Positions 17,175-30,333 of a DNA stretch of 64,000 bases are shown piece by piece. The position numbers were made by a program, and so were the translations under genes. Source of the DNA: Acidimicrobiales bacterium (GTDB lineage: Bacteria; Actinomycetota; Acidimicrobiia; Acidimicrobiales; JAVJTC01); contig JAVJTC010000004.1 of the NCBI GenBank assembly GCA_040219085.1, positions 1 through 64,000 of the forward strand, in the 5' to 3' direction. Within the stretch, counting starts at the first letter, position 1, and each line of letters opens with the position of its first letter. Under the pieces are notes generated by a model that was not told the DNA's origin, made no database searches, and saw nothing but the letters and a program-made list of their open reading frames with translations.

Positions 17175-19382
17175 TCAGGCGTCGAGATCGAGGGTTGCGG
17201 CGAAAGCCTCGAGTGCGCTTCTCGAGGCCTGTTCTCCACGATCCGCCATCGACGCGACCGCATCGAAGTCCAGGAGTCCGCAGTCCTCGAGGGGAAGGTG
17301 GACGTAGAGATCGGCGTGGCCTTCTCTGACGAGCCGGTCCCGGTTCTGAACAGACGCCATGAGCGTCGAACGCACGAGGATCCCCGGCAGTGTCGGCGGC
17401 GCATCGTGGCCACGTCGCCTGTCGAGGCGATCCCACAGTGCCCGCCACCCTGACAACGACAGCCCGAAGCCGACGTCCAGCGACGGTGCGTCGGTGGGTG
17501 ACACGTCGATCGCGAGGACGGTCCCGGACGGATTCCGTCGACGCATCTCGTCGAGAGGGAGGTTGTTGAGCAGGCCGCCGTCCACGAGGAGTTCGTCGCC
17601 GAAGGGAACCGGCGGCAGGACGCCGGGGATGGCGGTGGATGCCCGCACGGCCACGGCGAGGTTCCCCGAATCGTGGATCACCTCGGTCGCGTGGGTGAGG
17701 CTCGACGAGACACAGAAGTACGGGATCCACAGGTCCTCGATCCCCGTGTCGCCCAGCGCGGACTCGAACGCCTCGGCAACCCGCCGTCCGCGCAGCACAG
17801 CGACGAGCGGCAACGTGTAGTCGAAGAGGTTCTCGAACCTCTGCACCGCGACGGCCTCCCAGCCGCGCGCGTCGTAGCCGAGCGCGGGCCCGGTACCCAT
17901 CACCGCACCCATCGACGTCCCCGCGACCATGTCCACCGGGATAGCCATTTCCTCGCAGAGCCTCAGCACACCCAGGTGAGCGAAGCCCCTCGCTCCGCCG
18001 CCCGACAGCACGAGGCTGACGCCGCGGCCCGTCACGAGCCGGGCGACCCGCGCGATGTCACCGGAGTGGTCACGCCGCATGTGGAGGTGGGCGACGCCGG
18101 GTCGCCGATCCAGCCACCTCGTCGTACCGCGCGGCAAGGCGGTGCTCGGGTCGTGGACCAGCACGAGAGTCGTCGGAACGTGATGGTGATCCGCGAGGAA
18201 CTCGAGCACCGACCTCTCCACCCCGTCCGGTGTCGGGTCCGCCGCCGCATCGGCGACCACCAGGACGTGGTCCGCCGCGCGGACGGCCCGGCGCGTCCAC
18301 GGCGACCAGGTGCGGTCGGCGACGAGCACGATGAACCGACGCGTCTCCTCGAGTTCCCCCAGCCAGTAGTCCAGGCGCAGCGCCCCCACGCCGTGGTCTG
18401 GCGACTGGGAGATCGCGTCGCGGCCGAGGTGCCTGTCGACCTCCGCCGAATCGAGGATTGCGCTTCGATCGGGCCCCAGGGCCTCGAAGAGTTGCCGCGC
18501 CGCGCCATCGACGTCGACGTCGGGACCCGCCCCGACCACGACGATGGCCTGACGTGTCGCCGCCGGCTCACCGCCGGAGCGCACACGCCGCAGGACGGTC
18601 CTGGCCACCTCCATGACGACCTTGGGCGAGCGTTCCATCACCAGCGCGAAAGCCGCCCGGTCGAGTCGCACGAGGTGGCTGTCGCGGACCGCGTACACGC
18701 TGGCCGACCGCGGCGTGTCGTCGAGAAGGCCCATCTCACCGACCATCTCGCCCCGACCGATCTCGCCGAGTACGACCTCGTCCCCACCTGTGCCGACCGC
18801 GGCGTGGAGTCTGCCCGACACGACGAACCAGGCGGCATCGGATTCGTCGCCCTCGGCGAACAGCGTCTGCCCGGCGGGGATGTTCACCCACTCCATGAGC
18901 GACTCGGCGAGCTCGAGCGTGTCGGGATCGGCGCTACCGAACAGGCGACTCACGTGATGTCGCAACTGGGTGTGGCGGAGTCGCTCTGTGGCGATCTCGG
19001 CCAGCCGACCGATGAGAACCCCGTCATCGGCCGCCGTCCCGTCGAGCGCGGATGCGGGGATCGCCACCACGGTCACGGACCCGAGGGCGCGCACCGTCGT
19101 GGCGCGTGTGTCCCCCGTGAGGACACCGATCTCACCGAGGAGACCGGGGGCGGAGACCTCTGCGAGCTTCTGGTCAGCGAGGCCGTCGAAGCCGAGGAGC
19201 ACCTCCACCGTCCCGGACGTCAAGACGAGGAGTTCATCGGAGACCGCCCCCTGGGCGAGCACCGTCGCGCCCGCTGGCAGACGCCGTACCCGGGAGGCGG
19301 CTGCGAGCGCTTCGAGCGCGTCCTCATCCAGGTCGTCGAAGGGCTCGACAGCCCGCAGGTCCCCGACGTCCACATCCCCCAT
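17175..19382 (-). CDS. Patatin-like phospholipase with two cyclic-nucleotide-binding domains (NTE/RssA family)
   Basis: 735 residues from ATG at 19382. Two cNMP-binding-type domains occupy roughly residues 10-125 and 140-280 (PGLLGEIGVLTGD and GEMVGEMGLLDDTPRSA are their conserved loops). A central region of about 180 residues resembles the linker of neuropathy-target-esterase-like proteins. The patatin domain from about 465 has the oxyanion loop SGGGARGFAHLG, nucleophile GTSMG and catalytic DGG in VDGGLLNNLP. Homologues in mycobacteria have this order. It is probably a membrane-associated (lyso)phospholipase or esterase under nucleotide control. It is divergent from the DNA ligase gene, 76 bases apart. 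Confidence 0.9.
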   Translation of the reverse strand: MGDVDVGDLRAVEPFDDLDEDALEALAAASRVRRLPAGATVLAQGAVSDELLVLTSGTVEVLLGFDGLADQKLAEVSAPGLLGEIGVLTGDTRATTVRALGSVTVVAIPASALDGTAADDGVLIGRLAEIATERLRHTQLRHHVSRLFGSADPDTLELAESLMEWVNIPAGQTLFAEGDESDAAWFVVSGRLHAAVGTGGDEVVLGEIGRGEMVGEMGLLDDTPRSASVYAVRDSHLVRLDRAAFALVMERSPKVVMEVARTVLRRVRSGGEPAATRQAIVVVGAGPDVDVDGAARQLFEALGPDRSAILDSAEVDRHLGRDAISQSPDHGVGALRLDYWLGELEETRRFIVLVADRTWSPWTRRAVRAADHVLVVADAAADPTPDGVERSVLEFLADHHHVPTTLVLVHDPSTALPRGTTRWLDRRPGVAHLHMRRDHSGDIARVARLVTGRGVSLVLSGGGARGFAHLGVLRLCEEMAIPVDMVAGTSMGAVMGTGPALGYDARGWEAVAVQRFENLFDYTLPLVAVLRGRRVAEAFESALGDTGIEDLWIPYFCVSSSLTHATEVIHDSGNLAVAVRASTAIPGVLPPVPFGDELLVDGGLLNNLPLDEMRRRNPSGTVLAIDVSPTDAPSLDVGFGLSLSGWRALWDRLDRRRGHDAPPTLPGILVRSTLMASVQNRDRLVREGHADLYVHLPLEDCGLLDFDAVASMADRGEQASRSALEAFAATLDLDA

Positions 19383-19458
19383 CTCCCACTGATCGTGCCA
19401 CAGCCGGGTGCCTCCGGCCGGTCCGGCGTGGCCCCGCCCCATCGGCGACGATGGGGAC

Positions 19459-20475
19459 ATGGAGCCCGACCCGACCGACAGCGGTCCCGCCCACACGCCC
19501 GCGCGGACGACGGCGCCGGGCTTCCGTGTCCCGATGCTGGCGACTCTCGCGGAGCCCGGTGACGTCGGCGACGGATGGGTCGTCGAGCGCAAGTTCGACG
19601 GCATCCGCCTCGTCGTGGTGCGCGACGGCGACGACGTCGCACTGTGGACCCGCAACCACAACCGCCGCGACGGGTCGTTCCCGGACCTGGTCGCCGCGCT
19701 GCGTGAGCAGCCGGTCGACCGCTTCGTCGCCGACGGCGAGGTGGTCGCGTTCGAAGACGGGCGCGACAGCTTCGCCGCGCTGCACGGCGGTGGCGCCGTG
19801 TTGTTCCTTTTCGATCTGATGCACCTCGACGGTCACGACCTGGACGACGTGCCGCTGGTCGACCGCCGGCGCCTGCTCGAACAGGCGGTCGTCTTCGATG
19901 CGAAGATCCGGTTCAGCCCGAGCCTCGACGGCGATGCGACGGCGCTGTTGACCGAGGCGTGCGCGCAGGGCTGGGAGGGCCTCGTCGCGAAGCGGGCAGG
20001 GGGCCGCTACGTGCACGGCCGCAGCCGCGACTGGCTGAAGCTGAAGTGCGTACGGCGCCAGGAGATGGTCATCGGCGGCTTCACCGACCCGAAGGGTTCA
20101 CGAACCGGCCTGGGGGCGCTCCTCGTCGGCCACCACGACGGTGGAGACCTCGTCTATGCGGGGAGGGTCGGGACGGGTTTCGACGAGTCCACGCTCGTCT
20201 CGCTCATCGAACTTCTCGAAGCGCGGCGGCGGGAGAACCCGCCCTTCACGCGGGGCATGGACAAGGGTGGTCCGCCGAAAAAGGCAAGCCACTGGGTCAA
20301 CCCTGATCTCGTGTGCGAAATCGGATTCGCGGAGTGGACGCCCGACGGAAAGCTGCGCCACCCGCGGTTCCTGGGTCTTCGGGACGACAAGGACGCATCC
20401 GCCGTCGTCCGTGAGGACGACGTCGTAGCTCAGGCGGCGGACGTCTTCCCCGACGAACCGGAGACCGCCCGGTAG
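19459..20475 (+). CDS. ATP-dependent DNA ligase (LigC/LigD-ligase type)
   Basis: 338 residues. Nucleotidyltransferase motifs: KFDGIR with the lysine that is adenylated (motif I), DGEVVAFEDG (motif III), EGLVAKRAGGRY (motif IV) and WLKLK (motif V), followed by an OB-fold domain. There is no polymerase/primase or nuclease domain as in full LigD, and no ku gene adjacent, so this is a stand-alone ligase like LigC of mycobacteria, a group linked to repair. I chose ATG 19459; the frame is open further upstream but codes low-complexity residues. A GACGAT hexamer lies six bases before this ATG. Its last 46 bases overlap the convergent GlsB gene. Confidence 0.9.
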   Translation: MEPDPTDSGPAHTPARTTAPGFRVPMLATLAEPGDVGDGWVVERKFDGIRLVVVRDGDDVALWTRNHNRRDGSFPDLVAALREQPVDRFVADGEVVAFEDGRDSFAALHGGGAVLFLFDLMHLDGHDLDDVPLVDRRRLLEQAVVFDAKIRFSPSLDGDATALLTEACAQGWEGLVAKRAGGRYVHGRSRDWLKLKCVRRQEMVIGGFTDPKGSRTGLGALLVGHHDGGDLVYAGRVGTGFDESTLVSLIELLEARRRENPPFTRGMDKGGPPKKASHWVNPDLVCEIGFAEWTPDGKLRHPRFLGLRDDKDASAVVREDDVVAQAADVFPDEPETAR

Positions 20476-20852: not shown

Positions 20853-22247
20853 TCAGGCGACCGTGGCGGTCCAGGAGAACTGGTTCGCCTCCTGGCCCTG
20901 CTCGTAGTAGACGCCCTCGATGGTCGTGTCGGAGGTGATGACCCCCTCGTAGGTACCCCGGCGGAATCCGAGACGCTCGGGAGCGTCGTCGACGAAGACC
21001 ACGGTGCCGTCCGAGTTGACCTGGCCGACGAGGGTGAACTGGCCGGTCTCGGGCCACTCGCTGACGCCCTCGATCGTGCCGTCCGGGTTGATCTGGAAGG
21101 CGAAGCTGTGGGAGGCGACCGGGTCGTTGACCGAGCCGGCCAACACGATCGCCTCTGCGGCACCACCGGTCATCGGATCGCCCCCGCTGGAACCACCGGC
21201 CGGCGGCGCAGCCACAACCGGGAGCTCGAAGCCCTGGATCGCGTTGTCGTCGAAGAGCGACATCAGGCCGTGGACGTGACGGACGTGGACACCGAAGTTG
21301 TTCGCCGCCTGAGCCTGCCGGTCGACGATCTGCTCGCCGGTCTGCTGGTCGATCGCGAACACCAGCCGCACGGTCCCCGCGTTGTTCACGGCCACCACCG
21401 AGTCACACAGGACGATCGCGGAACCCGAGGTGCCCGGCGTCGTCGGTGCCTGATGCTGGATGACGTCGACGTTCGTCACGTCGACGACCTCGTCCTGTCC
21501 GTGGGCCCGGAGAGCCGAGATGCGTCCGGTCAGCGACGTCGCCTGAGGGATGGTCAGCCCCGGGACGGAGGTGATGAAGTCGTCGACGTCACCGGGGAAC
21601 CCGGACAGGAGGATCTCGTCGCCTGCCGCGATCGCCACGTTCTCGGGGGCCAGCGTCAGGACGCTCGGAAGTACTTCCTTCGTGGTGATCAGTGCGACGT
21701 CGGGACTTCCGAACGGATCGCCGGTGTAATCGGGATGCACGATCGCCCGCAGGAGCTCGACGACGTCGCCGGTTCCCGCCTGAACGGCGACTGCCCGGCT
21801 GTACTGGATTCCACTCTGCGCAGCTCCCTCGAAGCCTTCGGCGACGTGGGCATTGGTGACGAGGACGCGGTCGTCGACCGCCCATGCGGTGCCGATGAAG
21901 GTGTAGGAGGGCTCGGCCTGGTTGGCGACGACGGCCTCACCGAAGACCTGATAGGTGGCCCGGTTCATGAGCTCGAACATGGCCTGGGGGGAAGGGCACT
22001 CCAGCGCGGTCGGGACCGAGCTCGTGGTCGAACCGGCCGTGGATCCCCCGTCGGATGCGGCGCCGTCGTCGCCGCCATTTCCTGCGCTCAGGTCGTCGCC
22101 TCCGCCGCCGCAGGCGGCGGCGAACACTGCGATGGCGATCAGAGCGGCAAGCAGTCGGGCCAGGCTGGCCCCTCTGCGTGCGGTGCCGATCCCGGCGCCC
22201 GTCTGGTGGTTCTCTGCGGTGGTGTGCGTGTTCGATCGGTTCTTCAT
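20853..22247 (-). CDS. Secreted trypsin-like serine protease lipoprotein
   Basis: 464 residues, ATG with GAGGAGG upstream. Signal peptide and lipobox AVFAAACG give an acylated Cys near residue 46, followed by a Gly/Ser/Asp linker. The S1C-like protease domain shows the catalytic triad: His in VTNAHVAEG, Asp in GSPDVALI and Ser in GTSGSAIV. After it comes a Pro/Gly/Ser spacer and a C-terminal beta-rich domain of about 110 residues, not a PDZ domain. So it is an extracytoplasmic, membrane-anchored protease whose targets are unknown. It diverges from the FHA regulator gene and shares its upstream region. Confidence 0.85.
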   Translation of the reverse strand: MKNRSNTHTTAENHQTGAGIGTARRGASLARLLAALIAIAVFAAACGGGGDDLSAGNGGDDGAASDGGSTAGSTTSSVPTALECPSPQAMFELMNRATYQVFGEAVVANQAEPSYTFIGTAWAVDDRVLVTNAHVAEGFEGAAQSGIQYSRAVAVQAGTGDVVELLRAIVHPDYTGDPFGSPDVALITTKEVLPSVLTLAPENVAIAAGDEILLSGFPGDVDDFITSVPGLTIPQATSLTGRISALRAHGQDEVVDVTNVDVIQHQAPTTPGTSGSAIVLCDSVVAVNNAGTVRLVFAIDQQTGEQIVDRQAQAANNFGVHVRHVHGLMSLFDDNAIQGFELPVVAAPPAGGSSGGDPMTGGAAEAIVLAGSVNDPVASHSFAFQINPDGTIEGVSEWPETGQFTLVGQVNSDGTVVFVDDAPERLGFRRGTYEGVITSDTTIEGVYYEQGQEANQFSWTATVA

Positions 22248-22383: not shown

Positions 22384-23094
22384 GTGCATGAAGACCAGTC
22401 AGCCGACCTCGAGGTGACGTTCATCGACGAGCTCCACCCGGTCGCGGAGTCGGGCCAGCTCACATTCGGCCGCGACGGCGACATCACCGTCGACGACGCC
22501 AACGCGTACATGCACCGGCGGGTTGGGTCGTTCGTCAACCACGACGGCACCTGGTGGATCCGCAACGACGGCCGGACGATCGAGATCGTGGTCGTCACCG
22601 ACACCGGCGCCCGGATCTCCCTCGATCCCGGTGCCTCCCAGGCCCTCACCGGGACTTCGGGCCTCGTCCGGTTCGAGGCCGGCGGGCTCACCTACGAGCT
22701 CGAGTACTCGCTGCACAGCCCGGCCGGCCCCCCGAGCACCGAGACCGCGGAACTCACGCGGGGAGAGACCCTCGAGTTCGGGACACTGCGGCTCAACGAC
22801 GAACAACGCCAGATGCTCGTCGCCCTCGCCGAGCCCCAACTGCGCGATCCCGCCGCGGAGAGCCACGAGATGCCCACCAACGCCGAGGTCGCCCACCGGC
22901 TCGGATGGTCGCTGCGTAAGTTCGACCGCAAGCTGGACTACATCTGCCGCCGCCTCGACGAGCAGGGGGTCCGGGGGGTACGCGGCCGGCAGGGGGTTCA
23001 GGCGACCGACAGGCGCCGCGTCGTCATCGACCACGTGCTGCGAACGGGGCTCATCGGCGAGGATGACCTCAGCCACCTCGACGAGACCGACTGA
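22384..23094 (+). CDS. FHA-domain protein with C-terminal winged helix
   Basis: 236 residues if GTG 22384 is used; ATG at 22342 or 22348 would add 12-14 residues. Residues about 15-110 form an FHA domain (LTFGRDGDITVDDANAYMHR, phosphothreonine-binding Arg in FGRDG, conserved WWIRNDG). From about residue 130 there is a winged-helix segment (LNDEQRQMLVALAEPQLRDP, GWSLRKFDRKLDYICRRL). This architecture is common in actinobacteria next to Ser/Thr kinases and suggests a phospho-responsive DNA-binding protein or adaptor. The kinase gene follows 147 bases downstream. Function is inferred. Confidence 0.8.
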   Translation: MHEDQSADLEVTFIDELHPVAESGQLTFGRDGDITVDDANAYMHRRVGSFVNHDGTWWIRNDGRTIEIVVVTDTGARISLDPGASQALTGTSGLVRFEAGGLTYELEYSLHSPAGPPSTETAELTRGETLEFGTLRLNDEQRQMLVALAEPQLRDPAAESHEMPTNAEVAHRLGWSLRKFDRKLDYICRRLDEQGVRGVRGRQGVQATDRRRVVIDHVLRTGLIGEDDLSHLDETD

Positions 23095-23190
23095 GACCGC
23101 CATGAGGGCCACCGCCGAACCCCGACCCCGTGCACCGGGCCCGACCCGCGGGCCAGCCGCCGTGGGGGGTCTGCGCCACGCCGGATGTAT

Positions 23191-23211
23191 GGGGGGTCCC
23201 CCCCATTCCGG
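23191..23211. promoter_or_regulatory. GGGGGG-T-CCCCCCC palindrome upstream of the kinase operon
   Basis: G6 at 23191-23196, T, C7 at 23198-23204, then ATTCCGG. It matches the element at 22308 and lies 30-50 bases before the kinase start. Confidence 0.35.
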
Positions 23212-23229
23212 TCCGGTGCCCGTCCGTCC

Positions 23230-23241
23230 TACAACGGGGCC
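23230..23241 (+). promoter_or_regulatory. Possible -10 box for the transmembrane kinase gene
   Basis: TACAAC (23230-23235) lies six bases before ATG 23242, the same spacing as clearer leaderless promoters in this window, but the last base deviates from the TAnnnT pattern. Confidence 0.3.
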
Positions 23242-25074
23242 ATGGACAACGAACGAGGTCAGATCCAGGTACGCCCGGCTGGCGCCGCCTCGGCGACTCC
23301 GGCAGTCTTCCAACGGGGGCCACATCTCCACGACCGACCCGTCCCCGCAGGTGGCGTGATGGCGAGCCTTGGAATAGACGGAATCGACGACGAGATCGAG
23401 ATCGGCCGCGGCGGTTTCGGTGTCGTCTACCGGGGGCACCAGAGCGACCTCGGCCGGACTGTGGCCATCAAGGTCCTCCCGGCGAACCTCGACCAGCGCG
23501 CCCGTGACCGCTTCGACCGGGAACGTCGTGCCATGGGGTCGCTGTCGGGACACCCGAACATCGTGACCGTCCACAGCACCGGGTTCACGACCGACGAGCG
23601 CCCCTTCATCGTGATGGAGTTTCTCGAGCGCGGGTCGATGGACGACCGCATCCGACGCGACGGCGCGGTTCGCTGGGACGAGGTCGCCGACCTCGGCGCG
23701 GCGCTGGCCGACGCCGTTCAGGCCGCACACGACGCGGGCATCCTGCACCGCGACATCAAGCCGGCCAACGTCCTCGTGTCGGACCGGGGCGAGCCGAAAC
23801 TGGCCGACTTCGGCATCGCCCGCCTCGAAGGGGCGCCCGAGACGGCCAGCAGCGTGATCACCGCGTCGATCGCCCACGCGGCCCCGGAGATCCTCGACGG
23901 TCGACGTCCGACCGAGGCGGCGGACATCTACTCCCTGGCTTCGACACTGTACGAACTGCTCATCGGGCGACCGGCGTTCTGGCGCGAGACCGACGAGTCG
24001 CTCGTCCCGATGCTCGCACGCATCTCGCGCGAGCCCGTTCCCGACCTGCGTGCGCTGGACGTCCCGGCACCGCTGTGCGCAGCTCTCGAGGCGGCCATGG
24101 CCAAAGACCCCGCGGACCGACCCGCATCCGCTCGGGCTTTCGGGGAATCGCTCACCGCGGCGCTCGCCGAGGCCACCGGCGCGGCGCGATCCGACGACGG
24201 ATCACCAGGTGGCCACACGATCAGTGTGTTCAGTCCGCCACCGCCCCACGACGCTCCGCCGGCGACGTCGGGGAATCCTCCCGTGGGTGCCCCTCCGGGA
24301 CCGCCTCCCGCAGGCCCGCTCGCCGGTGGCGCGGCGACCAGTCAGCCCGGTGGCACGGCCCACATCTCCCAACCTCCCCCGGGTGCCGCAGCGCCACCGG
24401 GAACGCCGAGCACGCCGACCGCCCGGTCGGGCCCCAACTGGAACCTCATCGTCGTCTCCGCGGGCGCGGCGATCGTCCTTCTCGTGGTGATCATCGTCCT
24501 CGCCACCCGTGGTGGGGGCGGTGATGACGCCCCACCGAGCGGCGACGACGGAGGGGCCACCACCTCGGGGCAGGCCGTACTGCCCGTCAGCGGCGGCGAG
24601 GACTACCCGGCCTACACCACCCTCTTCGACGACACGGGTGCCATCCAGCTGTCGGTGCCGGCCGCATGGTCCGACGTGGACCTCGGCGCCGCCGACCGTT
24701 CCGTCGCCGTCATCGGTGTCTCGACGAACGTCGCCCGCGCCCTCGAGGAGTTCGACACGCCCGGTGTCGTCATCCGGGTCGACCCGGGGCCACTCCTCGA
24801 CGCCGACGCTGCGCTCGACGCCTTCGTCGACCCGACCGGGTGCGAGAGCCGGGGACGGGGGGCGTACGCCGATCCCCTCTACACCGGCCGCTTCGAGCAG
24901 CTCGTGAACTGCGGGGACGTGAACTCCACGATCTGGGTCGTCGTCGCAGCGCCGACCGACAACAGCTTCAGCGTCGTGGTGTCCATCCAGGCCGTCGACG
25001 AACGCGACGAGGCCGCTGCTCGACGGGCGCTCGACACCTTCATCATCGAGCCACGGGCGGTACCGGGGTCATGA
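23242..25074 (+). CDS. Transmembrane Ser/Thr protein kinase (PknB-like)
   Basis: 610 residues. The kinase domain spans about 48-305: glycine loop IGRGGFGVVYRG, ATP-anchoring Lys in VAIKVL (about 77), catalytic HRDIKPANV (about 170), DFGIAR and a modified APE (AAPEIL). A Pro/Gly-rich juxtamembrane region of about 90 residues leads to one membrane segment (about 400-424), then an Asp/Gly linker and an extracellular domain of about 165 residues with three Cys that is not a PASTA repeat. It should sense an external cue and phosphorylate cytoplasmic targets such as the FHA proteins encoded here. ATG 23359 just before the kinase core is a possible alternative start. Its stop overlaps the oxidoreductase start (ATGA). 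Confidence 0.9.
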   Translation: MDNERGQIQVRPAGAASATPAVFQRGPHLHDRPVPAGGVMASLGIDGIDDEIEIGRGGFGVVYRGHQSDLGRTVAIKVLPANLDQRARDRFDRERRAMGSLSGHPNIVTVHSTGFTTDERPFIVMEFLERGSMDDRIRRDGAVRWDEVADLGAALADAVQAAHDAGILHRDIKPANVLVSDRGEPKLADFGIARLEGAPETASSVITASIAHAAPEILDGRRPTEAADIYSLASTLYELLIGRPAFWRETDESLVPMLARISREPVPDLRALDVPAPLCAALEAAMAKDPADRPASARAFGESLTAALAEATGAARSDDGSPGGHTISVFSPPPPHDAPPATSGNPPVGAPPGPPPAGPLAGGAATSQPGGTAHISQPPPGAAAPPGTPSTPTARSGPNWNLIVVSAGAAIVLLVVIIVLATRGGGGDDAPPSGDDGGATTSGQAVLPVSGGEDYPAYTTLFDDTGAIQLSVPAAWSDVDLGAADRSVAVIGVSTNVARALEEFDTPGVVIRVDPGPLLDADAALDAFVDPTGCESRGRGAYADPLYTGRFEQLVNCGDVNSTIWVVVAAPTDNSFSVVVSIQAVDERDEAAARRALDTFIIEPRAVPGS

Positions 25075-26624
25075 GCGACGAGACGGACATCTCGCCGGGT
25101 GGCGACCTCACCGACGACCTGATCGCAACCGACGTGTGGACCGACGAGGCGGTGGCCGCGGCGGGAATCCCCGTCGTCGACGCGCCCTTCGTGACCATCG
25201 GCGGGGGGCTCGGCTCGTTCGCCCTCGTCGACACACTGCGCATCGCCGGCGTCGCTCCCGACCAGATCGCCGTCCTCACCACCCTCACCGAGCCGTGGAC
25301 GACCTACGAGTACCTGGCACGCAACTCCCAGATCCCGGGCCACGAACGGCTCCGATCCGACTCCGCGTCCACCATGGACAACATCTGGGGGTTCCCCAGC
25401 TACGCCGTACGCGAGGGCCTGGCAGCGAAGGGGTTCGGGGCGAAGCTGCAACCCCTGTGGAACGTCCTGGTCGAGCCAGTGCTGTCGGACTTCTACACAC
25501 CCCGGGCCGGCGACGTGTACCGCTCGGTGGAGAAGGAGGCCGCACGGATCGGCTGGGACACGCTGCTGCGCCCCGGCATCGTCCGGATGGTGCGGCGCCG
25601 CCACGGCGGCGGCTACTTCAGCGTGCTGACGCCCCCGGAAGGCACCAGCGTGACCCGCCGGGTGGCCTACCGGTCGCGCTGGGCCCACGTCGCCGTCGGC
25701 TACCCCGGCGTGAAGTTCCTTCCCGACCTCCAGGAGTACAGGGAACGCCACCGCGACTTCAGCCGTGTCGTCAACGCCTACGAGCCCCACGACCACGTCT
25801 ACGAGGAACTGAGGGCCCGGGGCGGCACCGTCGTCGTGCGCGGCTCGGGCATCGTCGGCAGCCGGATCCTCCAGCGCCTCATCGACGACCGTGAACAACA
25901 CGGCGCCGACACGACGATCTACCACCTGTTCCGCAACTACGTCCACGGACCCCAGGGCGACAGCGCCACCTTCCGTCGCGACGGCGGGCGGGGATTCGCC
26001 TACCAGGCGTTCAACTTCCCGAAGGCGGCCTGGGGCGGCCAGATCAAGGACCAGTTCGAGGCGCTCGACGGTCCCGAACGGGCGAAGCTGCTCGGTCGCC
26101 TCGGCGGGACCAACACCCCCAGGCGCCGCTCTTGGCAGGAGCAGATGGACCGGGGACTCGCCCAGGGCTTCTACCGCCAGACCGTCGGTTCGGTCACCTC
26201 CGTCGTCCCCGGACCCAACCAGACCATCGTGACGACCCTCGACGGCGAGGACGGCCAGACGTACTCGGTGGAGGCCAACTTCGTCATCGACGCGACAGGC
26301 CTCGAATCCGACATCGCCGAGCACCGTCTCCTGGCGGACCTGTTGGATCACGGCGGCGCCGCACGCAGCGACTACGGCCGCCTCGACGTCGACCCCGACT
26401 TCGAGATCAAGGGCACACGGGCCGAACCGGGGCGGATGTACGCATCCGGTTCGGCGACCCTCGGTGGCCACTACGCCGGCGTCGACTCGTTCCTGGGCCT
26501 GCAGTACGCGGCGCTGCGGATCGCCGACGACCTCGCGGACCAGGGCTTCGGCAACCGGATCGGCGTCGGGCGGTCGATCTCGCAGTGGTGGCGCTGGGTG
26601 CGCAACCGGAAGGTGGACGGATGA
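25071..26624 (+). CDS. FAD/NAD(P)-binding oxidoreductase-like protein, family not recognised
   Basis: 517 residues, no signal peptide. A dinucleotide-binding strand FVTIGGGLGSF lies at residues 40-50, a second Rossmann-type motif VVVRGSGIVGSR around 255, and an FAD-type IDATGLESD motif around 410. The order resembles flavin-dependent monooxygenases of the N-hydroxylase type, but I cannot name the reaction. It overlaps both the membrane kinase gene and the next gene by four bases, so its production is tied to the kinase. A redox enzyme or redox sensor under kinase control is a reasonable inference. Confidence 0.7.
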   Translation: MSDETDISPGGDLTDDLIATDVWTDEAVAAAGIPVVDAPFVTIGGGLGSFALVDTLRIAGVAPDQIAVLTTLTEPWTTYEYLARNSQIPGHERLRSDSASTMDNIWGFPSYAVREGLAAKGFGAKLQPLWNVLVEPVLSDFYTPRAGDVYRSVEKEAARIGWDTLLRPGIVRMVRRRHGGGYFSVLTPPEGTSVTRRVAYRSRWAHVAVGYPGVKFLPDLQEYRERHRDFSRVVNAYEPHDHVYEELRARGGTVVVRGSGIVGSRILQRLIDDREQHGADTTIYHLFRNYVHGPQGDSATFRRDGGRGFAYQAFNFPKAAWGGQIKDQFEALDGPERAKLLGRLGGTNTPRRRSWQEQMDRGLAQGFYRQTVGSVTSVVPGPNQTIVTTLDGEDGQTYSVEANFVIDATGLESDIAEHRLLADLLDHGGAARSDYGRLDVDPDFEIKGTRAEPGRMYASGSATLGGHYAGVDSFLGLQYAALRIADDLADQGFGNRIGVGRSISQWWRWVRNRKVDG

Positions 26625-27076
26625 CCCCCAGCTTCATCGGACGCATCCAGACCCGCCTGTTCCTGCTCGCCACCGTCGGGGTCGTGTGGACCCTGCTCAT
26701 CACCCCCCTGTTGCCCTCCAACGACGGCCTGCCCGGCGAGAGCCGCATCGGCGACCTGTACTCCACGACCTTCGGCGCCCTCGTGACGATCGCCATCGTC
26801 GGGGTGATCGTGTGGGAGCCGATCTACCACGGTCTCCAGCAGCTGCGGTGGGAGAAGGACTGGCCGATCCTCTACGGCCTTCTGACCGGGATCCCCGAGG
26901 GCCTCGTCGCCTGGGCGATCGTGCGCGAGATGGTGATGGACTCGACGACGGTGCCCTCCGATGCGACCTTCTGGTGGCACTTCACCACGACGTGGGTGAT
27001 CGTCTGGCTCGTCGCCAACGGACCGCTGCGGGTCGTGTTCATCCGCTGGCGCTACCGCGGCGGCCGGATCCGTTGA
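26621..27076 (+). CDS. Small polytopic membrane protein of unknown function
   Basis: 151 residues with hydrophobic segments at about 10-30, 50-70, 85-102 and 118-140. The polar loop with YHGLQQLRWEKDWP and a basic C-terminus (RWRYRGGRIR) suggest cytoplasmic contacts. Coupled by ATGA to the oxidoreductase upstream and by TTGA to the permease downstream. No family recognised. Confidence 0.7.
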   Translation: MTPSFIGRIQTRLFLLATVGVVWTLLITPLLPSNDGLPGESRIGDLYSTTFGALVTIAIVGVIVWEPIYHGLQQLRWEKDWPILYGLLTGIPEGLVAWAIVREMVMDSTTVPSDATFWWHFTTTWVIVWLVANGPLRVVFIRWRYRGGRIR

Positions 27077-28386
27077 ACGGGACGGTGCCCCGCGAAGGTC
27101 GACCCCGACCGGCGCTCGACACCCTGGAGGGCGCCTTTCTCGAGGCACAGCAGGCGCGGACCGAGTCCACACGCAGACGGGGCCGCCTCGCCCTGGTGGT
27201 GCCTCTGTCGGTCACGGTCGCATGGGCGGCGTACGTCTCCGCGTCAGGCCAGTGGGGTCGGGTCGGCGACAACGTCGCGGCCTCGGTCACGATGGTCTTC
27301 GGCAGCTTCGTGGCGGGCTCCACCCCCCAGGGCGGAGGTGCGGTGGCGTTCCCCGTCTTCACGAAGGTGCTCGAGGTCCCCGCCGAGGTCGCCCGTTCGT
27401 TCTCCCTGTCGATCCAGACCGTCGGGATGGGGGCCGCCGCGCTGGCGATCGTGGTGACGCGACGCGCCGTCGAATGGCGCGCCGTGGCCGTGGGCATTCC
27501 CGTGGCGGCGACGGCGTTCGTGGCGACGCTCGTGCTCGCAGGGGACGCCGGCCAACCGTTCTGGCCATCACGACTTCCCGGCCCGTATGTGAAGGTCACG
27601 TTCACCCTCGTCCTCGCTGCGATGGCGTGGCTCGTCTTCCTCGCCCAGCGGGTACCCGTGCGCAAGGTCGACGCCGGATTCACGGCCCGCAACGCCCGCC
27701 TCGACGCCGCTCTGGTCCTGGCGGCAGTTGCGGGTGGGGTCGCCTCGGCGTTGGTCGGATCGGGCGCCGATGTGGTCGTCTACCTGATGGTGGTCCTGAT
27801 CCTGGGCGTCGACGCCCGGGTCGGGGTCCCCACGAGTGTGCTCGTGATGGCCTCGGTGAGCGCGGTGGGATTCGTCGTCCTGGGCCTGTTGGACGGCCAG
27901 CTCGCGACGACGGTCGTCGGCGACGCCGTCACCGAACTCGGAGGCGCCGAGGTCGCACTGGTGGACGGCGCGGCGGTGTTCGCATCGCCCGATGCGCCGG
28001 GTTCGCTTCCGCTGCCCGCCGACCGGTTCGATCTCTTCGGCATGTGGATCGCCGCTGCGCCGGTGGTCGCCTGGGGTGCCCCGTTGGGGTCATGGGCCGC
28101 TGCGCGGGTTACGCGGACCCAGCTCGTGCGGTTCGTTCTCGTGCTCGCGGTCGCTGAGATCGTGTCGACAGCGATCTTCCTCGACGAGTTGCACTCGGAC
28201 CCGGCCCTCGTCGCCTACGGCGTAGTCGGTCTGGCCGTCGCCGCGACGGGACTCACCTGGGTGGCCGGGCACCGCAACAAGCTCTTCGGTCTGCCGGGCG
28301 TCGACGGTCTGGCCACGCTGCGCCGCACGGATCTCGAGGTCGACAGCGACTTCAGTCGGCACCTACGCAACGGTGACGATCCATGA
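27073..28386 (+). CDS. TSUP/TauE-SafE-family membrane permease
   Basis: About 437 residues from TTG at 27073, which overlaps the previous stop as TTGA; GTG 27085 is an alternative start. About nine membrane segments in two halves. The half-repeat block FGSFVAGSTPQGGGAVAFP near residue 75 and its counterpart SALVGSGADVVVY near residue 225 are typical of TauE/SafE proteins, which move sulfite, sulfonates or other organic anions across the membrane. The long N-terminal cytoplasmic extension and a C-terminal tail of about 40 residues are larger than usual. Its place between kinase genes suggests regulated transport. Confidence 0.8.
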   Translation: MNGTVPREGRPRPALDTLEGAFLEAQQARTESTRRRGRLALVVPLSVTVAWAAYVSASGQWGRVGDNVAASVTMVFGSFVAGSTPQGGGAVAFPVFTKVLEVPAEVARSFSLSIQTVGMGAAALAIVVTRRAVEWRAVAVGIPVAATAFVATLVLAGDAGQPFWPSRLPGPYVKVTFTLVLAAMAWLVFLAQRVPVRKVDAGFTARNARLDAALVLAAVAGGVASALVGSGADVVVYLMVVLILGVDARVGVPTSVLVMASVSAVGFVVLGLLDGQLATTVVGDAVTELGGAEVALVDGAAVFASPDAPGSLPLPADRFDLFGMWIAAAPVVAWGAPLGSWAAARVTRTQLVRFVLVLAVAEIVSTAIFLDELHSDPALVAYGVVGLAVAATGLTWVAGHRNKLFGLPGVDGLATLRRTDLEVDSDFSRHLRNGDDP

Positions 28387-28408
28387 CCGGCCACAGGAGG
28401 AACCGACC

Positions 28409-29203
28409 GTGAAGGGCATCGCCGACTACGTGTTCACGGGCACGCTGCGGGAGGGCAACCACGGAACGTTCCATCTCGCGGCGCCGCCCGCACGACTGGG
28501 GGTCGACGCCGACACGGTGGTGGTCAAGGTCCTCCACGAGCGTGCCGGCGACGACGAGTTCCGCCGGATGGCGAACGAACTGCGGATCCACGCGTCGGTG
28601 GACTCGCCGCTATTGGTGGCAATCCTCGATGCCGGGCACCAGGACGGTCGCCTCTACTACGCGGCTGAGCACTTCCCAGAGGGCAGCCTCGCGGCGCCGA
28701 CCGGCGAGCGTGACGGTGCCGCCCGGATCGCCGCGGTACGTGACGCCGCCCGGGCCGCGCACGCGCTCCACGAGGCCGGCGTGGCCCACCGCGACATCAA
28801 GCCCGACAACGTGATGCTGACGACCGACGGCGGCCGACTCGGAGATCTCGGACTCGCCCAGATCCTGAACCCGGGGATGACCGTCACGGGGGTCGGACCG
28901 ATCGGCGCACTCGAGTACCTCGCTCCCGAGGTCGCCCATGGCGCCCCCGGCGGCCGGGCGAGTGACATCTGGGCCCTCGGCGCGACCCTGCACCGGGCTC
29001 TCACCGACGCCCCGCTGTACCCCGAGATGCCCACCGGCTCTGTGCTGGCGGCCCTGCGCCACCTCCTCGACACCAGACCGACCGTCGCCGGCGATCTCGC
29101 ACCTGAGGTCGCCGTCGTCGTGACCGCCTGCCTCGAGCCCGAACCCCACGATCGACCCGCCACCGCCGCGGAGCTCGCCGACCGTCTGGAGGCACTCACA
29201 TGA
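28409..29203 (+). CDS. Soluble Ser/Thr protein kinase, compact
   Basis: 264 residues from GTG 28409, with AGGAGG eight bases upstream; an earlier GTG at 28373 lacks such a site. No membrane segment. The glycine loop is poor (LREGNHGTF), Lys40 in VVVKVL is present, HRDIKPDN at 127-134 is intact, DFG is DLG (146-148) and APE is intact. It is therefore probably active but diverged. It belongs to the same operon as the transmembrane kinase and overlaps the following FHA gene by four bases. Confidence 0.85.
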   Translation: MKGIADYVFTGTLREGNHGTFHLAAPPARLGVDADTVVVKVLHERAGDDEFRRMANELRIHASVDSPLLVAILDAGHQDGRLYYAAEHFPEGSLAAPTGERDGAARIAAVRDAARAAHALHEAGVAHRDIKPDNVMLTTDGGRLGDLGLAQILNPGMTVTGVGPIGALEYLAPEVAHGAPGGRASDIWALGATLHRALTDAPLYPEMPTGSVLAALRHLLDTRPTVAGDLAPEVAVVVTACLEPEPHDRPATAAELADRLEALT

Positions 29204-30333
29204 GAGCCGTCGTCACCGCGGGTGAGGCCCATGTGGCCCGGTGGCCCGACGCCGCCGCCGTCATCGGCCCGCCGGGAAGCGCCGCCGACGCACTGGTCGG
29301 CGCACTCGACGCCCTGGGGTCACGCGACGTCGACAGCGTGCGCGCGCTGCTCGGCGCGTCGCCCGACGAGGTGTCGGCCTCGGTCGTTCTGCTGCGCCCG
29401 CCTCCGGAGACCTCCCACCCGGTGCTCGTCAGTGGGACGGGGATCGTGACCCACGGCGGCGCCACCATCGCGGCCGACGGCGACGGCGTCGCGGAAGGCG
29501 ACGCGAGTGGCACGCCGATCGTCCTCGCTGTCGACGCGACCACCGCAGCTGCGGCCGGTGGTATCGGGGACCTGCGCACGGGCATCGTGGCCGGATCCGC
29601 ACTGACCCTGCTGCCCGATCCCCGCGAGGCCTCGCCCGTCGCCGAGGCCGCCGCTCTCGACACGGACCGCCCCGCCGACGACGCGACGCCAGGCGACACG
29701 CTCGTCTTCGAACCGCAGACGACTGGTGAGTTCACCTTCGTCGACGTTCGCAACACGGGCGCGACCGTGCGGCGTGCCCCGCTTCCGGTGGCCGCCGCTC
29801 CCGACCCCGAGGCTCCCCTCGAGACGACGGTCTTCTCGCAACCCGCCCAGACCGACGAGGACCGGCCCGCGACGGAGGTCTTCGGGATCCTGTGCGCCCG
29901 CCAGCACTTCAACCACCCTCACGCCCGGTACTGCAACCGCTGCGGGCTCTCGATGCTGCAACTGACCCACAACCTGATCGCCGCACCCCGACCGACACTC
30001 GGCTTCCTGGTGTTCGACGACGGAGCGACCTGGGCGATCGACCGCTCGTACCTGATCGGACGCGACCCGACGGCGCCGACCAGCACCGCGCTGGACCGAC
30101 TCGGGGTCAGCGGTGATGCGTCGACCGTGTCGATCGACCACGCCGAGGTCCGGCTCGAGAACTGGGACGTGACTCTCGTCGACCTCGGCTCGACGAACGG
30201 CACGTTCGTGTGGGACGCCGCGACACACCGTTGGGAACGACTCGCACCCCGCCGGCCCGTCACCATCGCACCGGGGGCGACGGCCGCCGTGGGCCACCGC
30301 ACCTTCGTCTACGAATCGGCCCTCCTGCGGTGA
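29200..30333 (+). CDS. Zinc-ribbon FHA-domain protein
   Basis: 377 residues. The N-terminal 110 residues have no recognised domain; a low-complexity Asp/Ala/Thr linker follows, with TLVF and TTVF-type threonine motifs of the kind phosphorylated in FHA partners. A zinc ribbon uses Cys232, Cys245 and Cys248, with His236 or His239 as the likely fourth ligand (HFNHPHARYCNRCG). The FHA domain at about 270-377 has the phosphothreonine-binding YLIGRDP, IDHAEV and LVDLGSTNGTFV motifs. Coupled to the soluble kinase by ATGA. It is likely a phospho-dependent adaptor for the two kinases. Confidence 0.85.
   Translation: MRAVVTAGEAHVARWPDAAAVIGPPGSAADALVGALDALGSRDVDSVRALLGASPDEVSASVVLLRPPPETSHPVLVSGTGIVTHGGATIAADGDGVAEGDASGTPIVLAVDATTAAAAGGIGDLRTGIVAGSALTLLPDPREASPVAEAAALDTDRPADDATPGDTLVFEPQTTGEFTFVDVRNTGATVRRAPLPVAAAPDPEAPLETTVFSQPAQTDEDRPATEVFGILCARQHFNHPHARYCNRCGLSMLQLTHNLIAAPRPTLGFLVFDDGATWAIDRSYLIGRDPTAPTSTALDRLGVSGDASTVSIDHAEVRLENWDVTLVDLGSTNGTFVWDAATHRWERLAPRRPVTIAPGATAAVGHRTFVYESALLR

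What the first reader, a model, noticed from the sequence alone, without database searches (positions are those of the whole stretch)
22384..30333. Coupled signalling block: two kinases, two FHA proteins, a flavoprotein-like enzyme, a small membrane protein and a TSUP permease
From 23242 to 30333 six genes are linked, five by 4-base overlaps or a 22-base gap. A transmembrane kinase with an unrecognised external domain, an oxidoreductase-like protein of unknown reaction and a sulfite/organic-anion-type permease are tied to FHA readers. Such tight coupling implies one pathway, perhaps phospho-regulated redox and anion transport. I know of no described system with this set.
Basis: partly seen in the sequence, partly recalled or inferred. 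Interest (0 to 1): 0.62.

Follow-up and report, generated by a model that had tools for sequence, protein, structure and literature searches.

The report
Kinase-controlled flavoenzyme and membrane partner
A bacterial gene cluster encodes an undescribed flavin enzyme that almost always travels with one small membrane protein and often with proteins that read or write phosphate marks, so it looks like a membrane-bound redox enzyme under kinase control in two distant groups of bacteria.

Summary
In detail: six co-directional genes at 23242-30333 with four 4-base overlaps and one 22-base gap. The constant core is not the whole block but the oxidoreductase ("FADox") plus the 151-residue 4-TM protein ("MP151"); neither matches Pfam or NCBIfam. 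In the window's class, 13 of 13 FADox-positive genomes carry MP151 and 0 of 283 others do; in cyanobacteria 63 of 64 and 0 of 80 sampled negatives, even where the two genes are far apart. In 28 of 28 distinct cyanobacterial loci examined a phosphothreonine-type FHA domain is fused to the enzyme. Of 29 other actinobacterial loci, 21 have a kinase and 17 the FHA2 protein within 6 kb. The TSUP permease is exchangeable: 9 loci have TSUP, 9 a PF00999 antiporter, none both. FADox is predicted to fold like N-hydroxylating monooxygenases and has no cysteine. Best reading: a membrane-docked NAD(P)H flavoenzyme switched or positioned by Ser/Thr phosphorylation. Reaction and phosphorylated partner are unknown; "anion transport" as the purpose is not supported. 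The papers searched describe no such system.

The parts
20853..22247 (-). Trypsin-like peptidase (PF13365) with a lipoprotein-like N-terminus (by eye); possible peripheral member
   Evidence: Pfam Trypsin_2 42.9 bits over cut-off 27.6; trypsin-like genes within 6 kb of FADox in 2 of 29 actinobacterial and 2 of 28 cyanobacterial loci
22384..23094 (+).
   Evidence: no Pfam/NCBIfam hit; relative beside the cluster in L022 only, opposite strand
23242..25074 (+). STK1: Hanks-type kinase, one TM segment (by eye), external domain of about 150 aa without recognised family
   Evidence: Pkinase 154.7 bits; external domain 32% identical to that of the L022 kinase, weak relatives in 3 of 295 other class genomes, no PDB sequence match up to E 5
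25071..26624 (+). FADox: 517-aa FAD/NAD(P)H enzyme, N-hydroxylating-monooxygenase-like predicted fold, no cysteine, C-terminal QWWRW helix
26621..27076 (+). MP151: 4-TM protein, near-obligate partner of FADox
27073..28386 (+). TSUP (TauE/SafE) permease; exchangeable transporter slot
   Evidence: PF01925 39 bits over cut-off 32.6; 9 of 29 relatives
28409..29203 (+). STK2: kinase domain only, no TM segment seen
   Evidence: Pkinase 103 bits; HRD and D-L-G motifs in the sequence
29200..30333 (+). FHA2: N-terminal region without recognised family, short segment with three Cys (three in 3 of 6 relatives incl. the window, one in the rest), C-terminal FHA domain with R288, S311, N333
   Evidence: PF00498 33.4 bits over cut-off 20.7; these residues invariant in 6 of 6; profile matches GarA/OdhI FHA chains

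Best explanation
FADox and MP151 form one unit: a NAD(P)H-dependent FAD enzyme docked on the cytoplasmic face of a 4-TM membrane protein. The unit is positioned or switched by Ser/Thr phosphorylation. In cyanobacteria the enzyme carries its own FHA domain, which should bind a phosphothreonine on a kinase, on itself or on a membrane partner. In actinobacteria a separate FHA protein (FHA2) and a soluble kinase (STK2) made from the same operon do this. A transmembrane kinase with an interchangeable external domain (STK1 type) brings in the outside signal. The neighbouring transporter (TSUP, or a PF00999 antiporter elsewhere) is a second client of the same switch or exchanges a solute linked to it. 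Shown here: gene linkage, co-occurrence, FHA fusion, motifs, predicted folds. Inferred: complex formation, phosphorylation control, oxygenase or oxidase chemistry. Most likely chemistry is hydroxylation or oxygenation of a membrane-associated or membrane-delivered substrate.
For: Co-occurrence: MP151 in 13 of 13 FADox-positive and 0 of 283 FADox-negative genomes of the class, the positives lying in 13 different families by the tool's labels; in cyanobacteria 63 of 64 positives and 0 of 80 negatives. Pair kept when unlinked: in G110 MP151 lies 3.75 Mb from FADox along a 4.58-Mb contig (about 0.8 Mb the other way round if circular), beside a kinase and FHA2. FHA fused to FADox in 28 of 28 distinct cyanobacterial loci (25 genomes), all fitting a GR..S..H..N pattern. 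Kinase within 6 kb in 21 of 29 and FHA2 in 17 of 29 actinobacterial loci; FHA2 in 10 of 13 FADox-positive against 3 of 67 other class genomes. Enzyme: model pLDDT 82.5; Foldseek best hits SidA and PvdA, E about 5e-17, 15% identity; profile A1 weakly matches an N6-monooxygenase, E 0.0086; glycines of both nucleotide sites and a DATG motif invariant in 18 of 18. Membrane: C-terminal helix with Trp506 in 30 of 30 and Trp509 in 27 of 30; 15 of 20 invariant MP151 residues in segments I assigned to the cytoplasm, 5 in TM helices, 0 in the outside loops.
Against: No experiment. Complex formation was not modelled. Seven of 29 actinobacterial loci (L025, L026, L043, L048, L049, L117, L120) show no kinase and no FHA2 within 6 kb (L026 and L117 are short contigs); for one of them, L043 (G277), FHA2 is on another contig. 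G059, G287 and G123 have no FHA2 match at the threshold used (the G123 contig ends shortly after MP151). In cyanobacteria only 7 of 28 loci have a kinase within 6 kb. One cyanobacterium (G943) has FADox without MP151. By VIA-align Z the closest chain is a bacillithiol disulfide reductase (Z 25.6, rmsd 3.2, 314 aligned), above the N-hydroxylases (Z 23.9, rmsd 3.5, 390 aligned), so the fold alone does not fix the chemistry. The stretch 289-320 is modelled with pLDDT under 50.
Confidence: 0.62

Rival explanations
1. FADox-MP151 is a membrane electron-transfer enzyme (NAD(P)H:quinone type dehydrogenase) and not a monooxygenase; MP151 forms a quinone or lipid site next to the flavin.
For: Trp-rich C-terminal helix; invariant acidic residue E93 inside a TM segment and invariant Trp/Arg on the assigned cytoplasmic side of MP151; the two-dinucleotide-domain fold is shared with other NAD(P)H flavoenzymes in the hit lists.
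Against: The matches with most residues aligned are N-hydroxylases, about 380-395; no conserved Cys in MP151 and only H120 in 12 of 15, so no sign of a haem or thiol relay; no confident PDB fold match for MP151.
Confidence: 0.25
2. FADox is a redox or electrophile sensor that gates the neighbouring transporter, as KefF does for KefC; catalysis is secondary.
For: A PF00999-type antiporter is within 6 kb in 9 of 29 actinobacterial and 3 of 28 cyanobacterial loci, in most of them in line with FADox, FHA2 or the kinase (Pfam checked for L041 and L044); TSUP in 9 other actinobacterial loci, none with both. KefF is an oxidoreductase encoded with a CPA2 transporter and its enzyme activity is not directly needed for activation (PMC10224563, passages).
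Against: 25 of 28 cyanobacterial loci have neither of these two transporter types within 6 kb; the constant partner is MP151, not a transporter; KefF has a different fold (recalled).
Confidence: 0.1
3. A defence or biological-conflict system with kinases, protease and an effector flavoenzyme.
For: Kinases, FHA and a trypsin-like protease occur together; FHA and trypsin-like parts also occur in NTP-dependent conflict systems (PMC7159879, listing and passages).
Against: PADLOC hits are only generic kinase models and a weak protease match; FADox, MP151, TSUP, FHA2 and the 22384-23094 protein have none. Pfam shows no NTPase or toxin in the six genes. The main text of that paper has no flavin, FAD or TauE mention.
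Confidence: 0.04
4. Chance clustering of unrelated signalling and metabolic genes in this genome.
For: Some relatives carry the pair without signalling genes nearby (7 of 29).
Against: Co-occurrence and FHA fusion across two phyla.
Confidence: 0.02

Closest known systems
N-hydroxylating flavin monooxygenases (SidA, PvdA, KtzI, DfoA)
   Same: Predicted fold over most of the chain; FAD and NAD(P)H site motifs
   Different: About 15% identity, no Pfam profile match, Trp-rich C-terminal helix, near-obligate membrane partner, FHA fusion
GarA/OdhI FHA switches under PknB/PknG
   Same: FHA domain of the same type controls a metabolic enzyme under Ser/Thr kinases (PMC9769921, abstract start in listing)
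   Different: FHA2 is larger and fails the NCBIfam OdhI/FhaB cut-offs; the presumed target is a membrane flavoenzyme; in cyanobacteria the FHA is fused to the enzyme
PknF-Rv1747 (kinase and FHA-bearing ABC transporter in one operon)
   Same: Kinase, FHA and a membrane protein in one operon (PMC3908365, abstract start in listing; reference title in PMC6213207)
   Different: No flavoenzyme; transporter family differs
KefC-KefF
   Same: CPA2-type transporter and an oxidoreductase in one operon (PMC10224563, passages)
   Different: Enzyme fold differs (recalled); no kinase/FHA (recalled); TSUP, not CPA2, in this window

Membership tests
N-hydroxylating / class B flavin monooxygenase | Two dinucleotide-binding sites with conserved glycine motifs | tested here: met
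   G44, G46, G48 and G258, G260, D407-A-T-G410 invariant in 18 of 18
N-hydroxylating / class B flavin monooxygenase | Overall fold | tested here: met
   Foldseek SidA 4.8e-17, TM 0.57 on a pLDDT 82.5 model; VIA Z 23.9 with 390 aligned; Bdr scores higher Z over fewer residues
N-hydroxylating / class B flavin monooxygenase | Match to a curated family profile | tested here: not met
   No monooxygenase family in Pfam or NCBIfam up to E 0.1; only Trp_halogenase at 0.026, below cut-off
N-hydroxylating / class B flavin monooxygenase | Oxygenation of an amine substrate | not testable with these tools
   needs biochemistry
Pyridine-nucleotide disulfide reductases (TrxR, Lpd, Bdr) | Redox-active cysteine(s) | tested here: not met
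   0 Cys in the window protein; best Cys column 11 of 30, at position 494 near the C-terminus
Hanks-type Ser/Thr kinases (STK1, STK2) | Kinase profile above curated cut-off and catalytic motifs | tested here: met
   154.7 and 103 bits, cut-off 31.7; HRD and DFG/DLG
PknB/PASTA kinases | NCBIfam PknB_PASTA cut-off / PASTA repeats | tested here: not met
   STK1 198.9 bits, cut-off 450; no PASTA hit
FHA domain (FHA2) | Pfam cut-off and phosphothreonine-binding residues | tested here: met
   33.4 bits over 20.7; R288, S311, N333 invariant in 6 of 6; which residues bind is recalled
FHA domain (22384-23094 protein) | Pfam FHA match | tested here: not met
   0 families up to E 0.1
GarA/OdhI, FhaB | NCBIfam equivalog cut-off | tested here: not met
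   OdhI 20.1 of 200 and FhaB 21.9 of 125 bits
TSUP (TauE/SafE) | Pfam cut-off | tested here: met
   39 bits over 32.6
Known anti-phage defence systems | PADLOC model for a non-kinase component of the block | tested here: not met
   FADox, MP151, TSUP, FHA2: 0 families; the neighbouring protease has weak RT-Protease_XI matches
KefF ancillary flavoproteins | Flavodoxin-type fold (recalled) | tested here: inconclusive
   not among the listed fold matches, which is not an exclusion

The most novel reading that the evidence does not exclude
FADox-MP151 is the founding member of a new class of phosphorylation-gated membrane flavoenzymes: an FHA domain (fused or separate) tethers a monooxygenase-like enzyme to a phosphorylated site at the membrane, and the same kinase circuit adjusts a solute transporter. 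It would link external sensing, NAD(P)H redox state and ion or anion flux in actinobacteria and cyanobacteria.
Probability: 0.35. Interest if true: 0.78.

Novelty: new variant of a known kind. Interest (0 to 1): 0.6.

Why it matters
It turns a loose 'signalling block' into a precise, testable two-protein unit with no family name in Pfam or NCBIfam, found in two phyla including about one in six sampled cyanobacterial genomes (60 of 386). A natural FHA fusion gives a direct clue that a redox enzyme is steered by Ser/Thr phosphorylation. The targets of bacterial Ser/Thr kinases and the signals read by their external domains are largely open; here kinases, reader, enzyme and transporter sit in one operon.

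Tried and rejected
Rejected: disulfide reductase chemistry by its own cysteines (none present). Haem- or thiol-based membrane redox partner for MP151 (no conserved Cys; only H120 in 12 of 15). MP151 fold relatives: Foldseek best E 1.2 and VIA best Z 6.5 to phycocyanin-like helical chains, within what helical bundles reach by chance; this is not proof of a new fold. FADox alone against PDB sequences gave only chance hits. The protein at 22384-23094 gave no useful PDB match. A small protein downstream of FADox in 5 cyanobacterial loci (frames of 167-239 aa) resembles a YHS-type protein by recall, but Pfam gave 0 families for the one tested, so no function is drawn from it. The frame FHA-FADox-MP151 in L108 is not used as a fusion argument: FADox there has lost its C-terminal part and looks like a deletion copy in a genome with a second, longer FADox.

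Literature: searches (listings); passages seen in PMC7159879, PMC7880944, PMC6584798, PMC2176072, PMC10224563, PMC6213207, PMC11871447. None of what I saw describes this gene set; the library lacks most subscription journals and holds no preprints.

Rows dropped and limits. One search leaves out L040 (same as L028) and L118 (98% to L098); the G196 locus (L011, 3.5-kb contig) was not in that table, its MP151 is adjacent; the window itself is not counted. Of 63 FADox places in 60 cyanobacterial genomes 22 were fetched, plus 7 loci (29 loci, 28 after removal of L118). In the tree L108, L117, L040 and L118 were left out. Several loci end within 1-3 kb of FADox, so kinase/FHA/transporter counts are lower bounds. 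The neighbourhood models were built from the loci themselves, not from Pfam; Pfam was run on a part of the proteins. FADox-negative cyanobacteria searched for MP151 were 80 of 326; 20 of the 80 are printed as negative, the rest follow from handle numbers and its tally; 51 of the 80 are under 3.5 Mb and 29 are 3.5 Mb or more (table). Likewise 20 of the 67 FADox-negative class genomes are printed as negative, the rest follow from its tally of 13.
Full report
1. Observation. The gene calls and junctions of the finding are right. STK1, FADox, MP151, TSUP, STK2 and FHA2 run 23242-30333 on the + strand with overlaps of 4, 4, 4, a 22-base gap, and 4. STK2 most likely starts at GTG 28409 behind AGGAGG, which gives the 22-base gap. 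Pfam finds two kinases, TauE/SafE and one FHA domain above cut-off. The first 'FHA protein' (22384-23094) is not recognised as FHA by Pfam, and its relative appears beside the cluster in only one other actinobacterial locus, L022. FADox and MP151 have no Pfam family above cut-off and no NCBIfam hit.

2. Who has it. FADox relatives were found in 13 of 296 genomes of the window's class, 12 of 396 of the phylum (the sets overlap), 17 loci of a separate genome collection, 10 actinobacterial and 7 cyanobacterial by their titles, one Nonomuraea record and 60 of 386 sampled genomes of the cyanobacterial phylum. A tree of 56 FADox proteins puts the 27 cyanobacterial rows on one side of a fully supported branch (100/100). 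Other phyla were not searched genome by genome.

3. The constant part is a pair. A profile of MP151 (A2) was searched in 296 class genomes: it rang in 13, exactly the 13 with FADox, and in none of the other 283. The 13 lie in 13 different genera and 13 different families by the tool's labels. In cyanobacteria MP151 was found in 63 of 64 FADox-positive genomes (G943 is the miss) and in 0 of 80 FADox-negative ones (51 of these are small genomes under 3.5 Mb). The partnership outlives linkage: in G110 MP151 is 3.75 Mb from FADox along a 4.58-Mb contig (about 0.8 Mb the other way round if circular) and sits in line with a kinase and FHA2; in G734, G790 and G832 the two are 0.5 to 2.6 Mb apart on one contig, and in G862, G928, G822, G860, G1041, G656, G658 and G659 they are on different contigs. 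Genomes are related, so no p-value is claimed, but the patchy spread makes inheritance alone an unlikely cause.

4. Phospho-signalling is attached in two ways. In 28 of 28 distinct cyanobacterial loci (25 genomes) the FADox reading frame begins with an FHA domain that fits a GR..S..H..N pattern (Pfam FHA confirmed on L032, L038 and L105); 20 of 28 have a further FHA gene within 6 kb, mostly directly upstream. The one read in full, L032, is an FHA domain followed by two CxxC pairs. In the 29 other actinobacterial loci no such fusion was found, but MP151 is within 6 kb in 28, a kinase in 21 and FHA2 in 17. In cyanobacteria a kinase is within 6 kb in only 7 of 28. FHA2 retains R288, S311, N333 in 6 of 6, and its FHA part matches GarA and OdhI chains by profile. 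FHA2 is present in 10 of 13 FADox-positive class genomes and 3 of 67 others, in G196 and G277 on a contig other than that of FADox. Background: this genome has 7 kinase domains and 8 FHA matches in 3.77 Mb.

5. The sensor and transporter slots vary. STK1-type kinases near FADox carry PnrA/Bmp-like, PASTA, septum-formation-like or NADase_transloc domains, or none recognised. The window's external domain is 32% identical to that of the L022 kinase, has weak relatives in 3 of 295 other class genomes and no PDB sequence match. TSUP lies within 6 kb in 9 of 29 actinobacterial loci and a PF00999-type antiporter in 9 others, none with both (Pfam checked for L041 and L044); in cyanobacteria 0 of 28 have TSUP and 3 of 28 the antiporter. 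In L041, L044 and L116 the antiporter follows FHA2 in line; in L042, L046, L112, L113 and L114 it lies upstream of FADox in line; in L043 it is on the opposite strand; in cyanobacterial L090 it lies between MP151 and FADox in line.

6. What the enzyme looks like. The AlphaFold2 model has mean pLDDT 82.5, with a stretch under 50 at 289-320. Foldseek ranks N-hydroxylating monooxygenases SidA and PvdA first (E about 5e-17, TM 0.56-0.57 to the query, 15% identity). VIA-align gives bacillithiol disulfide reductase the top Z (25.6, rmsd 3.2, 314 aligned) and DfoA the best of the N-hydroxylases (23.9, rmsd 3.5, 390 aligned of 427). By profile, an N6-monooxygenase chain matches weakly (E 0.0086, 88 positions), then flavin halogenase-type and other flavoprotein chains (E 0.17 and above). 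The glycines of both nucleotide sites and a DATG motif are invariant in 18 of 18. There is no cysteine in the window protein and no conserved one in the 30 sequences aligned, which argues against disulfide reductase chemistry. The C-terminus ends in a helix with Trp506 in 30 of 30 and Trp509 in 27 of 30, a common membrane-surface feature (inference).

7. What MP151 looks like. Four predicted helices long enough to span a membrane, basic N- and C-termini, so N-in/C-in by the positive-inside rule (inference). I drew the segment borders by hand from the model and hydropathy; of 20 invariant residues 15 lie in the cytoplasmic segments, 5 in TM helices, 0 in the outside loops. No confident structural relative. 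This is what a docking platform for a cytosolic enzyme would show; it also suits a quinone or lipid site.

8. Mechanism. Shown: linkage, co-occurrence, FHA fusion, motifs, predicted folds. Inferred: FADox docks on MP151; FHA binding to a phosphothreonine written by STK1 or STK2 moves or switches the enzyme; the transporter is a second client. The chemistry most consistent with fold and lack of cysteine is monooxygenase- or oxidase-type; quinone reduction is the main rival. The substrate is unknown.

9. Known or new. FHA switches under Ser/Thr kinases are known (GarA/OdhI; PknF-Rv1747), and KefC-KefF shows a CPA2 transporter with an oxidoreductase in one operon (PMC10224563, passages). The paper searches listed under Tried and rejected gave no description of a kinase/FHA-linked flavoenzyme of this kind or of MP151. 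I rate it a new variant of a known kind: known signalling parts, an unnamed enzyme and membrane protein as the output.

Noticed in passing
L108:7679-9886 (-): One reading frame holds an FHA domain, a C-terminally truncated FADox and a complete MP151; probably a deletion copy in a genome with a second FADox.
   Followed up: partly
L090:12912-15173 (+): Cyanobacterial protein combining a trypsin-like peptidase with two FHA domains, between MP151 and a kinase; trypsin-like genes also lie near FADox in the window, L022, L027 and L100.
   Followed up: partly
L023:5878-8658 (-), L031:7210-10014 (-): Kinases with a PnrA/Bmp-like ligand-binding domain, beside the cluster; by recall of PnrA, possibly nucleoside-type sensors.
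   Followed up: no
L097:10168-11793 (+), L107:11261-13657 (+): Cyanobacterial kinases downstream of MP151 carrying DUF4189, or a PDZ domain with TPR repeats.
   Followed up: no
L092:6800-7519 (-) and relatives in L096, L102, L107: GDSL-type lipase gene (Pfam checked for L092) between FADox and MP151 in 4 of 28 cyanobacterial loci.
   Followed up: no
window 17175-19661 (-): Large frame that by eye holds cyclic-nucleotide-binding-like and patatin-like (GGGARG, GTSMG) motifs; no family search was run on it.
   Followed up: no
G943 (locus L082): The only FADox-positive cyanobacterium of 64 without an MP151 match; incomplete assembly or a true loss was not checked.
   Followed up: no
L048, L049: A deep, well-supported FADox-MP151 branch with 174-aa MP151 (extra segment after the first helix) and no kinase, FHA, TSUP or PF00999-type gene within 6 kb.
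   Followed up: no
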